In this document: one piece after another, positions 18,775 to 24,309 of the stretch | Numbering within the stretch: the stretch's first letter is position 1 | How the letters are laid out: the number at the start of each line of letters is the position of its first letter | NCBI GenBank assembly: GCA_026225115.1 | Contig: JAMFSE010000119.1 | Span: forward strand, 1-64,000 | Reading direction: 5' to 3' | Length of the DNA: 64,000 bases | Origin: Rhodovastum atsumiense | GTDB lineage: Bacteria > Pseudomonadota > Alphaproteobacteria > Acetobacterales > Acetobacteraceae | The notes under the pieces: model-generated | The model's input: only the letters and a program-made list of their open reading frames with translations | Told to the model about the DNA's origin: nothing | The model's database searches: none | Made by a program: the position numbers and the translations under genes

Positions 18775-20733
18775 TTGCCCCAATCATTCCTAGAAAACCG
18801 CCATGAAATCAGCCCCGCCGTCCGCTCCAAGCTATCGCCCACTTTGCCTCATGGTCTGCCGGTGGTGAGCCGTCTGGATTTCCTGCCCCGGCTCAAGCCA
18901 CAGACAATTTTCCCGCAGCCTGAAGATCCTGAATTCTGGTCGAAGCTGCGTCACATCGCAGGGCACCAGCTACGGTTTACCGAAGTGTTAAAGCTGGACC
19001 GCCTGATCGCGAAAATCTCGCCGCAGGCCGCTGGCCTGAAGTTGAAGCTGGCGATCCTGTCCTCTGCGACAACGGAGCATCTTGCTGCGGGGCTGCGCGT
19101 TGCGGGCGCCCGGCATAACATGGCGATAGAGGTTTATACCCATGCCTATGGTTCAGCCTTGCAGGAACTCAACGATCCTGAATCCGGCCTGGCGGCATTC
19201 CACCCGGATGTCGTTTTAATCGCTTTTCCCTACCCGCATCTCTTCGGCTCCGGCGCGCTTGCAAAAACCCCCGGAAGCATCAGGGACAACCTCGCTTTCG
19301 CCAGCCGCATGCTGCAGAATTTGCGCGAGCTCGCATTCGAGAAATTCGGATGCGCGATCATCCAGCAAACAATTCTCCCCACCCAGCCGCCACTGGTCGG
19401 CAATCACGAATTCCAATTGCCCGGCGCCCCCGCCTGCCTGACGGCTGAGCTCAATGAAACCCTGCGGCAACAATCCATCGACCAGAAATTCGCAATTCTG
19501 GCGATCGATGAAGCCGCTGCCGCCGACGGCCTCGCCGCCTGGCATGACCGCGCTCTATGGCACCGCGCCAAGCAGGAAATCACCCCGGCGGCCGGCCTCG
19601 CATATGGCGAGATGGTTCTGCAAGTCATCGACGCACAGCGCGGCCGCACGGCAAAATGCCTGGTGCTCGATCTCGACAACACCCTGTGGGGCGGCGTCAT
19701 CGGCGATGACGGGCTGGACGGCATCAGCCTTGGTCAAGGCAGCGGCGTCGGCGAATCCTTCGTTGCCTTCCAGACTTACGCCAAACATCTTTCCGAACGC
19801 GGCATCATCCTCGCGGTATGCTCCAAAAATGACGAGGAGAACGCCTTGCTCCCGTTTCAAAAACATCCGGAAATGGTGCTGCGCCGGGAAGACATTTCCA
19901 GTTTCGTCGCAAACTGGACCGACAAGGCCAGCAATCTGCGCACCATCGCCAAGCACCTCAACATCGGTCTGGACGCGCTGGTGTTCTGCGATGACAACCC
20001 GTTCGAGCGTGAACAGGTCCGGGACGCCATTCCCGAAATCCGCGTGCCGGAACTTCCCGAGGATCCCAGCTTCTGGCCGGAAACCCTGGCCGCCGCCGGA
20101 TATTTCGAATCCATCTCGCTGACCGCGGATGATTTCTCCCGCGTCGCGCAATACCGGCTCAACGCGGAGCGGGAAAACCTGAAATCCAGTAGCAGCAATA
20201 TCGACGATTATTTGCGCAATCTGCAAATGGAACTGAAATGGGCCGCCGCCGATCTGGTGAATGTCGAACGCATCACCCAGCTCATCAACAAGACCAACCA
20301 GTTCAACCTCACCACAAAGCGCTACGATCTGGCCCAGGTACAGTCGATGATGACCAACCCGGACTCGTTGGTCCTGAGCTTTCGCCTGCTCGACCGTTTG
20401 GGTGATAACGGCATCATCTGCATCGTCATCGGCCATAAATCGGGCGAGGAATTGCTGATCGACAGCTGGCTGATGAGCTGCCGGGTTCTTGGCCGCGGGG
20501 TTGAGAAGGCCACGCTCGGCGTGCTCGCCGCCAAGGCCGCCGCATTGGGCGTCAGGCAATTGCGGGGGCGCTATGTGCCGACCGATAAGAATAAAATGGT
20601 GGCTGAACATTACGAAAATCTCGGATTTGTCGCCGCTGGAGAAAACATCGGCGGGGAGACGCTTTGGTCACTTGATCTTGCCGAATATACCATGCCAGAC
20701 TTGTTCATAAGGCTTACGCAGGTGGAACAATGA
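18775..20733 (+). CDS. FkbH-like HAD-IIIC family protein (putative glyceryl-ACP loader)
   Basis: KCLVLDLDNTLWGGVIGDDGLDGI HAD motif, KNDEENA, FCDDNPFEREQVR, C-terminal acyltransferase-like FKLN-type region (LINKTNQFNLTTKRY); TTG start at 18775 uncertain. Confidence 0.88.
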   Translation: MPQSFLENRHEISPAVRSKLSPTLPHGLPVVSRLDFLPRLKPQTIFPQPEDPEFWSKLRHIAGHQLRFTEVLKLDRLIAKISPQAAGLKLKLAILSSATTEHLAAGLRVAGARHNMAIEVYTHAYGSALQELNDPESGLAAFHPDVVLIAFPYPHLFGSGALAKTPGSIRDNLAFASRMLQNLRELAFEKFGCAIIQQTILPTQPPLVGNHEFQLPGAPACLTAELNETLRQQSIDQKFAILAIDEAAAADGLAAWHDRALWHRAKQEITPAAGLAYGEMVLQVIDAQRGRTAKCLVLDLDNTLWGGVIGDDGLDGISLGQGSGVGESFVAFQTYAKHLSERGIILAVCSKNDEENALLPFQKHPEMVLRREDISSFVANWTDKASNLRTIAKHLNIGLDALVFCDDNPFEREQVRDAIPEIRVPELPEDPSFWPETLAAAGYFESISLTADDFSRVAQYRLNAERENLKSSSSNIDDYLRNLQMELKWAAADLVNVERITQLINKTNQFNLTTKRYDLAQVQSMMTNPDSLVLSFRLLDRLGDNGIICIVIGHKSGEELLIDSWLMSCRVLGRGVEKATLGVLAAKAAALGVRQLRGRYVPTDKNKMVAEHYENLGFVAAGENIGGETLWSLDLAEYTMPDLFIRLTQVEQ

Positions 20734-20966
20734 CCGATGACGAAATTCTATCGAAAGTGACGGCGGTCGTGCGCGATGTCGTGGGCGATGATTCGGTCGT
20801 GCTGACAATGGATACATCGGCGCAGGATGTGCCGGGCTGGGATTCCATGGCCCATATCAACATTATTGTGGCGCTGGAACATGAATTCGGCATGAAATTC
20901 AAAACCGCTTCGCTCGAGGAGGCAAAGAATACGGGCGATCTGGTCCATCTTATCAAGGCCGGTTGA
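20730..20966 (+). CDS. Acyl carrier protein
   Basis: 78 aa with a phosphopantetheine-site-like PGWDSMAHINIIVALEHEFG; ATGA overlap with the upstream gene. Confidence 0.92.
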   Translation: MTDDEILSKVTAVVRDVVGDDSVVLTMDTSAQDVPGWDSMAHINIIVALEHEFGMKFKTASLEEAKNTGDLVHLIKAG

Positions 20967-21002
20967 AGGACATATCACAGCTGATGAGGCCGTTTTAAGC
21001 AG

Positions 21003-22565: not shown

Positions 22566-22575
22566 GAATACCCGA

Positions 22576-24309
22576 ATGAAAAGCTACCTCGCAGTACTGC
22601 TCGGCACTTTCAGCGTTCTGCTCATTGCCATGTGGGTCATTTTTCTGATGTTTTTCGGCAAAATGGCGTCGGGAGAATATGCGATAGCGAAAGCCCATGC
22701 CGATTTCATTGCAAAATGCGACTTGGGCGACATTGATATCCTGGGCGATTCTACGGCAAACGCCGCTTTCATCCCATCGCAGATTGGTCCGCAGGTGCGC
22801 AATCTTTCCTTTGGCGCCGGAACCCCGATCGAACTCTATTATGTCGCGAAATCCATATTGAAATGCCCAAACCGGCCAAAAGCGGTGATTCTGGCTTTTG
22901 TTCCTTCATCATTTGCGACGAACTCGTTTTATCCGGAACTGGGGAGAACCTTTTTCTGGGAAAGAGCCATCGAATATAATGTGGTGAGTTTTTCGGATTC
23001 ATTGGAGGTCTTAAAATATTCGCGACAGTTCAATGATACATTAATCGCCGGGCCAAAATCTCTATTCGATATCGACTATCGCGTGAAGGCATTTCTGTTC
23101 TGCCTCAAATTTCCGCCCTATCTGCTTCCCGAGGTTCAAAAATCCGCTCTGCCGAAACTGCAAGCGCTGGCCGCCGCTCAACTGCGGCGCATCCCCGGCC
23201 TCGGACCCAAGCACGTCACCGCCCCGGGACAGAAGCAAGCCGAACAGGCGTCCCTGCCTGGACCGCTGCCAACCGGCCCGATGATGTATAATCAAACGAT
23301 CCTCGATAACGGACATCATTTCTACGGCACGGATTCAAATGGCGGAGATCGCCTCGACCACGATGCCTACCGCAATGACGATCATACCGCGCCGCTGAAA
23401 GATTTTTACATGCGGCGGACGATCGCGATGTTATCGGCGAACGGGATCAAGGTGTTTTTGGTTGAACCGCCGCGCGACCGAAGCTCGGCGGTTCATTATA
23501 CGCCCGCATTGATCAATGGCTACCAGGCCTACCTGGCCGGTTTGCAGTCGAGCACGCCCTATGTTCATCTCATCAGCCAGGGCTTCCCCATCTGGGACCC
23601 GGTTTTATTCGGTGACAACCTGCATTTAAATCTGCGCGGAAGCTTGAATTTTTCGGCCGGCATTCGCGAAGCGCTGGTTGCCGCCGGCCTGGTCGATCCG
23701 GGTTACTCGGAAAGTCTGACGCCTGCAAACCTTTATGCGCATGCAAGTTCAGACCCGAATTCTTGGGTAATGCAGGCGTCCGGCACCGACGAAATCAGCC
23801 AGGCCGCCGACGTGGTTTTGCCGCAACTCGCCTTTCCCCCGGATGCTGAAGCCTGGCTGTACAGTACCAAATCACAGGGCGCGAATGCTGCACCAGCGCC
23901 GTCCGGCGTGAGGGCGCCACCGGTTAAACTCGTTGCCAAAATGAATTATGCGGCATCGATCCTGGTAAAAAACGTCAATGCCGATCAAGCGAGTCTGCAA
24001 CTGGTCTGGCCAGGCGGATTTGAAGGAAAGGTGAGCTGGAGCTTTGAGCGGCACCAGATAACTTATGCCGGCATGGCGACCAGTTTAAACAGCGGCGTTA
24101 CAATTTGCCCTGGCGGCTGGGTCGAATTGTTTTTAAGCGGCCGCAGCGGACCATCCACAGGCAGCTATTCCGGACCGGCAGTCTCGCTGACAGATCCGCA
24201 AAATGCCTCCGCTTATCTGTACAATCTGTCCCTGGAACCGGGCTTGTGGCCCACAAACTATTGTCCGCTGCAACCCGGTGAAGCGAAGACGGTAAATATC
24301 GCCGGCTAA
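22576..24309 (+). CDS. Membrane-anchored SGNH-hydrolase-like protein (DltD/AlgJ-like role proposed)
   Basis: N-terminal TM; ILGDSTANAAFIPSQIG GDS-like block; FGDNLHLNLRG candidate D/H block; 10 bp after the MBOAT gene. Confidence 0.65.
   Translation: MKSYLAVLLGTFSVLLIAMWVIFLMFFGKMASGEYAIAKAHADFIAKCDLGDIDILGDSTANAAFIPSQIGPQVRNLSFGAGTPIELYYVAKSILKCPNRPKAVILAFVPSSFATNSFYPELGRTFFWERAIEYNVVSFSDSLEVLKYSRQFNDTLIAGPKSLFDIDYRVKAFLFCLKFPPYLLPEVQKSALPKLQALAAAQLRRIPGLGPKHVTAPGQKQAEQASLPGPLPTGPMMYNQTILDNGHHFYGTDSNGGDRLDHDAYRNDDHTAPLKDFYMRRTIAMLSANGIKVFLVEPPRDRSSAVHYTPALINGYQAYLAGLQSSTPYVHLISQGFPIWDPVLFGDNLHLNLRGSLNFSAGIREALVAAGLVDPGYSESLTPANLYAHASSDPNSWVMQASGTDEISQAADVVLPQLAFPPDAEAWLYSTKSQGANAAPAPSGVRAPPVKLVAKMNYAASILVKNVNADQASLQLVWPGGFEGKVSWSFERHQITYAGMATSLNSGVTICPGGWVELFLSGRSGPSTGSYSGPAVSLTDPQNASAYLYNLSLEPGLWPTNYCPLQPGEAKTVNIAG

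What the first reader, a model, noticed from the sequence alone, without database searches (positions are those of the whole stretch)
18775..24309. Dlt-like acylation operon with an FkbH loader instead of an adenylation enzyme
Seen in sequence: four co-directional genes encode an FkbH-type HAD protein, a 78-aa ACP with a DSM phosphopantetheine site (ATGA overlap), an AlgI/DltB-type MBOAT, and a membrane-anchored SGNH-like protein (10 bp gap). Established: in DltABCD, DltA loads D-Ala onto carrier DltC, and DltB (MBOAT) and DltD (SGNH-like) move it outside; FkbH proteins load a glyceryl group from 1,3-bisphosphoglycerate onto ACP in polyketide pathways. Inference: this operon may export a glyceryl or derived hydroxyacyl group from ACP onto a surface glycan or lipid. 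I found no PKS, adenylation or reductase gene beside it, which favours a self-contained decoration system.
Basis: partly seen in the sequence, partly recalled or inferred. Interest (0 to 1): 0.82.

Follow-up and report, generated by a model that had tools for sequence, protein, structure and literature searches.

The report
Dlt-like envelope acylation with FkbH loader
Four neighbouring genes look like a machine that takes a small glycolysis-derived acid (probably glyceryl), hangs it on a carrier protein, passes it through the inner membrane and attaches it to a surface sugar polymer; it resembles the Gram-positive D-alanine system but has a different loading enzyme, and similar gene sets occur in many other bacteria.

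Summary
The window encodes FkbH (HAD-IIIC), ACP, MBOAT and an SGNH-type protein in one operon-like array; only the FkbH start is doubtful. The fourth protein's predicted fold matches DltD first (low TM-scores) and the MBOAT's matches DltB first. The MBOAT ends FLYFRF, the FXYXXF acyl-shuttle motif that DltX carries in Dlt and PatA carries at its own C-terminus.

The link is conserved. Of 80 FkbH relatives, 74 have an ACP nearby and 46 an MBOAT gene within 2.5 kb (one hit farther out), across Proteobacteria and Acidobacteria, in four gene orders; intact MBOATs nearly all end in FXYXXF. In two family members without a related FkbH, the same ACP-MBOAT-SGNH trio is followed by an AMP-forming ligase, so FkbH seems to replace the adenylation loader.

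Best explanation: FkbH charges the ACP with glyceryl, the MBOAT passes it via its C-terminal Tyr to the SGNH Ser, and it ends on an envelope glycan. The relay rests on homology, motifs and synteny; the glyceryl identity only on family biochemistry; the acceptor is unknown. 34 of 80 close FkbH relatives have no MBOAT nearby, so the FkbH-ACP pair also has other uses. I found no open-access paper on such a system.

The parts
18862..20733 (+). FkbH-type protein (FkbH_N domain, HAD-IIIC domain with DLDNTLWGG and AVCSKND, C-terminal FkbH part); proposed loader of glyceryl onto the ACP.
20730..20966 (+). acyl carrier protein, 78 aa, GWDSM phosphopantetheine site, ATGA overlap with FkbH
   Evidence: genome holds two PPTase-family hits
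21003..22565 (+). DltB/AlgI-type MBOAT, 520 aa, invariant His285 and His345
22545..22562 (+). C-terminal FLYFRF (F515-F520), the FXYXXF acyl-shuttle motif with Tyr517
   Evidence: motif defined in PMC12148441
22576..24309 (+). membrane-anchored SGNH/DltD-like protein, 577 aa: N-terminal helix, Ser59 / Asp347 / His350
23905..24270 (+). extra C-terminal beta-sandwich of the SGNH protein (about residues 444-565); fold hits phage tail fibre and, weakly, carbohydrate-binding modules; proposed glycan-binding

Best explanation
A carrier-protein-dependent envelope acylation system of the MBOAT-SGNH kind. Step 1 (inferred from family biochemistry): FkbH takes the glyceryl group of 1,3-bisphosphoglycerate, releases the phosphates, and leaves D-glyceryl as a thioester on the phosphopantetheine of the ACP. 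Step 2 (inferred from motif, fold and homology): the MBOAT moves the acyl group from ACP to Tyr517 of its own C-terminal FLYFRF motif, so no DltX is needed. Step 3 (inferred): the tyrosine ester is handed to Ser59 of the DltD-like SGNH protein outside the membrane. Step 4 (inferred): the SGNH protein esterifies a hydroxyl of a surface glycan, possibly held by its C-terminal beta-sandwich domain. Shown here: gene identities, catalytic residues, shuttle motif, fold matches, conserved linkage, and an AMP-ligase in the place of FkbH in relatives. Not shown: identity of the acyl group and of the acceptor.
For: Operon layout and families. MBOAT best PDB match DltB by sequence (9e-24) and by fold (TM 0.74 on target; model pLDDT 88). 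FLYFRF equals FXYXXF, shown for PatA and DltX to be the acyl-tyrosine shuttle (PMC12148441); F, Y, F and two His invariant in 33 FkbH-linked MBOATs. SGNH model best matches DltD (E 4.4e-5) and conserves Ser/Asp/His. FkbH keeps DLDNTLWGG and the CSKN cysteine, as do most FkbH relatives beside an MBOAT (38 of 46). ACP near FkbH in 74 of 80 loci, MBOAT within 2.5 kb in 46 of 80 versus 1 farther out, in orders FkbH-ACP-MBOAT-SGNH, MBOAT-FkbH-ACP-SGNH, ACP-FkbH-methyltransferase-MBOAT-SGNH and FkbH-ACP-SGNH-MBOAT. Related ACP-MBOAT-SGNH trios in G053 and G141, without a related FkbH, are followed by an alpha/beta-hydrolase and an AMP-forming ligase. In the family sample FkbH occurs in 8 of 10 genomes with this SGNH type and 22 of 110 without (Fisher p 2e-4), even when unlinked. 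It is the only MBOAT found in the genome.
Against: No biochemical data on any member; FkbH substrate inferred from polyketide pathways. 34 of 80 close FkbH relatives have no MBOAT near, many of them Acetobacteraceae FkbH-ACP pairs in other settings, so glyceryl-ACP has other consumers. SGNH model confidence is moderate (mean pLDDT 66) and TM-scores to DltD are low (0.36-0.39 on target). Seven MBOAT-linked FkbH relatives have Ser and one Val in place of the cysteine, so the reaction may vary. The AMP-ligase is separated from the trio by a hydrolase gene, so its role as loader is inferred from position.
Confidence: 0.66

Rival explanations
1. Same relay, but the exported group is not plain glyceryl: FkbH loads another three-carbon acid, or the glyceryl is remodelled on the ACP (methylated, or dehydrated and reduced to lactyl) before export.
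For: In 8 relatives a SAM methyltransferase lies beside FkbH, mostly between FkbH and MBOAT; a MaoC-SDR fusion lies within about 7 kb of FkbH in 7 loci.
Against: This window has no methyltransferase, MaoC or SDR gene in the operon, so here unmodified product is simplest.
Confidence: 0.2
2. The MBOAT-SGNH pair is an ordinary AlgI/PatA-like O-acetylation system using acetyl-CoA, and the FkbH-ACP pair serves an unrelated pathway that happens to be adjacent.
For: Known MBOAT/SGNH systems with a fused FXYXXF motif use acetyl-CoA (PMC12148441); FkbH-ACP pairs occur without MBOAT.
Against: 46 of 80 adjacency in four gene orders, ACP directly before MBOAT even in trios without FkbH beside them (L094, L095, L100, L104, L134), genome-level co-occurrence, MBOAT closest to carrier-dependent DltB among solved structures.
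Confidence: 0.08
3. Glyceryl-ACP feeds a small secondary metabolite or lipid, and MBOAT plus SGNH acylate that small molecule rather than an envelope polymer.
For: FkbH-ACP is best known from polyketide pathways (PMC7489565); FkbH and MBOAT are named together in aeruginosin papers.
Against: No PKS or NRPS gene on this contig; SGNH protein is DltD-like and membrane-anchored with a glycan-binding-like domain; some relatives lie next to glycosyltransferases (WbsX, GT87).
Confidence: 0.06

Closest known systems
DltABCDX teichoic acid D-alanylation
   Same: Carrier protein, DltB-fold MBOAT, DltD-fold SGNH protein, FXYXXF shuttle tyrosine
   Different: FkbH replaces the adenylation enzyme DltA; shuttle motif fused to the MBOAT, no DltX; Gram-negative host, where no teichoic acid acceptor is expected; extra C-terminal domain on the SGNH protein
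PatA/PatB and AlgI/AlgJ/AlgX O-acetylation
   Same: MBOAT with C-terminal FXYXXF plus membrane-anchored SGNH protein; one relative (L005) even has an AlgX-domain protein upstream of FkbH
   Different: Those draw on acetyl-CoA and have no carrier protein (PMC12148441); here ACP and FkbH are encoded with the pair
FkbH/ACP glyceryl-loading of methoxymalonyl-ACP and tetronate pathways
   Same: FkbH domain protein paired with a standalone ACP
   Different: No dehydrogenases, methyltransferase, FabH-like or PKS genes here; output appears to go to an MBOAT

Membership tests
Dlt D-alanylation system | DltA-type adenylation enzyme loading the carrier | tested here: not met
   Loader is FkbH; no AMP-binding hit on this contig
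Dlt D-alanylation system | Standalone carrier protein | tested here: met
   78-aa ACP with GWDSM; DltC model only weak, 22 bits of 68
Dlt D-alanylation system | DltB MBOAT | tested here: inconclusive
   Best sequence and fold match DltB but below the DltB equivalog cut-off, 172.6 of 375 bits
Dlt D-alanylation system | DltD SGNH protein | tested here: inconclusive
   Best fold hits DltD with low TM-score; no sequence match in the PDB
Dlt D-alanylation system | DltX microprotein | tested here: not met
   Motif is fused to the MBOAT C-terminus; the gaps between the operon's genes (36 and 10 bp) leave no room for a further gene
MBOAT-SGNH acyltransferase systems (PatAB/AlgIJ type) | MBOAT with conserved His and C-terminal FXYXXF | tested here: met
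   His285, His345, FLYFRF
MBOAT-SGNH acyltransferase systems (PatAB/AlgIJ type) | Partner SGNH protein with Ser-Asp-His | tested here: met
   S59, D347, H350 invariant in 9 relatives
MBOAT-SGNH acyltransferase systems (PatAB/AlgIJ type) | Acetyl-CoA donor, no carrier protein | tested here: not met
   ACP encoded beside the MBOAT here and in relatives; the donor itself is not testable here
FkbH glyceryl-loading proteins | FkbH HAD-IIIC domain with DxD nucleophile motif and conserved Cys | tested here: met
   TIGR01686 323 bits of 147; DLDNTLWGG; AVCSKND; role of the Cys recalled, not tested
FkbH glyceryl-loading proteins | Loads glyceryl from 1,3-bisphosphoglycerate onto ACP | not testable with these tools
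   Needs assay or MS

The most novel reading that the evidence does not exclude
ACP-MBOAT-SGNH is a modular export platform in Gram-negatives whose loader is exchangeable (FkbH with an acyl phosphate from glycolysis, or an AMP-ligase), with optional on-carrier tailoring, giving a widespread and undescribed class of glyceryl, methylglyceryl, lactyl or other acyl decorations of envelope glycans.
Probability: 0.5. Interest if true: 0.78.

Novelty: new variant of a known kind. Interest (0 to 1): 0.66.

Why it matters
It would extend the Dlt principle (carrier-bound acyl group pushed through an MBOAT tyrosine to an SGNH enzyme) from D-alanine and Gram-positives to glycolysis-derived acids in Gram-negatives, powered by an acyl phosphate instead of ATP adenylation. 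It would be an exception to the current statement that MBOAT-SGNH systems with a fused shuttle motif lack a carrier protein (PMC12148441), and it names concrete gene sets in culturable genera (Stutzerimonas, Paraburkholderia, Novosphingobium) in which to test it.

Tried and rejected
Chance adjacency: rejected by 46 near versus 1 far MBOAT in 80 loci. PKS/NRPS tailoring role: no KS or AMP-binding on the contig. Conserved chromosomal position: secA in nine same-genus stretches is not flanked by this operon, DUF72 or Lon (some stretches are cut short by contig ends), and the FkbH orthologue is found in the window's genome alone among 38 of the genus; with GC 52-60% across the operon and mostly 60-67% in the flanks it looks acquired. 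Promoter/terminator scan gave nothing above chance. PDB sequence search with the SGNH protein and its profile found nothing. Literature searches for FkbH with MBOAT, O-antigen or polysaccharide terms gave only aeruginosin papers or nothing. The ACP's best PDB match is 2lml, which I recall as a Geobacter ACP related to the published GmACP3 with a suggested LPS role; not verified (the paper is not held).

Full report
Anatomy. The FkbH start is probably GTG 18862 rather than TTG 18775 (623 aa for this protein, mostly 624-628 aa in its closest relatives). Families are FkbH (TIGR01686, 323 bits), PP-binding, MBOAT with a strong but sub-cut-off match to the DltB model, and a fourth protein without a curated family. 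The operon is lower in GC (52-60%) than most of its flanks (mostly 60-67%), and its FkbH orthologue is absent from the other 37 genomes searched in the genus, so it looks acquired. Many of the nearest named relatives are Acetobacteraceae; I did not identify the species.

The relay parts. By sequence the MBOAT's only solved relatives are DltB structures, and its confident model (pLDDT 88) finds DltB first. It ends in FLYFRF. A 2025 study of PatA/PatB (PMC12148441) defines FXYXXF as the acyl-shuttle motif: in Dlt it sits on the microprotein DltX, in PatA at the MBOAT's own C-terminus, and its Tyr carries the acyl group to the SGNH serine. Among MBOATs beside FkbH relatives, nearly all intact ones end F[LIV]YxxF; in 33 of them the F, Y, F and two histidines are invariant. 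The fourth protein has one N-terminal helix and conserved Ser59, Asp347, His350. Its model is of moderate quality, but the three best PDB hits are all DltD (TM-scores are low, so this supports the fold class and not fine detail). Residues 444-565 form an extra beta-sandwich; among the PDB hits of the model are phage tail fibres with high probability and, weakly, galectins and carbohydrate-binding modules, hence the guess that it holds a glycan.

Conservation of the link. A scan of genome contigs with an FkbH alignment gave 80 loci. An ACP is near FkbH in 74, and an MBOAT lies within 2.5 kb in 46, against 1 hit in the other 789 kb. Orders differ: FkbH-ACP-MBOAT-SGNH (Paraburkholderia, window), MBOAT-FkbH-ACP-SGNH (Stutzerimonas, Belnapia, Acetobacter), ACP-FkbH-methyltransferase-MBOAT-SGNH (Novosphingobium, Sphingomonas, Phenylobacterium), FkbH-ACP-SGNH-MBOAT (Rhizobium, Granulicella; SGNH assigned by eye from the GxS and H boxes). 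The partner proteins diverge fast. In the Stutzerimonas type a profile finds only DltD in the PDB, though weakly (E 0.13), and its profile match to the window's family is weak; in the sphingomonad type the profile matches the window's SGNH family at 94% probability; Pandoraea has an AlgX-domain protein upstream. On a tree of FkbH, MBOAT linkage is strongly clustered (8 changes against 28 in shuffles).

Exchange of the loader. In a sample of 120 genomes of the family, relatives of the window's MBOAT often sit directly after an ACP: L094, L095, L100, L104, and also G141/L134 within the genus. In G053 (L094) and G141 (L134), which have no related FkbH at the thresholds used, the order is ACP-MBOAT-SGNH-alpha/beta-hydrolase-AMP-forming ligase. 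Thus one ACP-MBOAT-SGNH core appears with an adenylating ligase in some genomes and with FkbH in others. In the same sample FkbH occurs in 8 of 10 genomes with this SGNH type and in 22 of 110 without (p 2e-4), including five (G002, G007, G026, G099, G113) where it lies on another contig. G057 (L095) shows neither loader nearby; its loader is unknown.

What the group is. FkbH proteins are assigned to glyceryl-ACP formation from 1,3-bisphosphoglycerate in polyketide pathways (PMC7489565). The window's FkbH keeps the DLDNTLWGG and AVCSKND motifs; the only solved relative, 3slr, has near-identical ones (function not assigned). From memory, not tested: the cysteine carries the glyceryl group as an enzyme thioester in OzmB. 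Glyceryl is the best guess, but MBOAT-linked relatives with a methyltransferase or, in a few loci, a MaoC-SDR fusion suggest that some operons export a modified acyl group, and eight MBOAT-linked relatives lack the cysteine.

Limits. 34 of 80 close relatives have no MBOAT near (a few because the contig ends); some sit by WbsX-type glycosyltransferases, so glyceryl-ACP probably has other users. The acceptor is unknown. Novelty rests on open-access full text only: searches for FkbH with MBOAT found aeruginosin papers alone, and PMC12148441 states that MBOAT/SGNH pathways other than Dlt lack a carrier protein. I file the finding as a new variant of the MBOAT-SGNH acylation kind: it works like Dlt, but it is not a Dlt system, since DltA and DltX are absent.

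Noticed in passing
L094:3993-10727, L134:7085-13395: ACP-MBOAT-SGNH followed by an alpha/beta-hydrolase (resembling exosortase-A-associated hydrolases) and an AMP-ligase, in genomes without a related FkbH.
   Followed up: partly
L071:10857-11780, L052:10884-11828 and relatives: SAM methyltransferase between FkbH and MBOAT in sphingomonad and Phenylobacterium versions, suggesting a methylated acyl group.
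   Followed up: partly
L007:15232-16884, L028:11077-12534, L067:7108-8502: MaoC-dehydratase/SDR fusion near FkbH; could convert glyceryl-ACP to lactyl-ACP.
   Followed up: no
L009, L014, L017, L023, L111, L113: FkbH-ACP pairs without MBOAT in Acetobacteraceae and kin, some beside WbsX-type glycosyltransferases; consumer of the acyl-ACP unknown.
   Followed up: partly
window 23905-24270: C-terminal beta-sandwich of the SGNH protein resembles phage tail-fibre and GTA spike-fibre domains.
   Followed up: partly
L002:478-2325 (contig C94 of the window's genome): Second, very divergent FkbH-type protein in the same genome.
   Followed up: no
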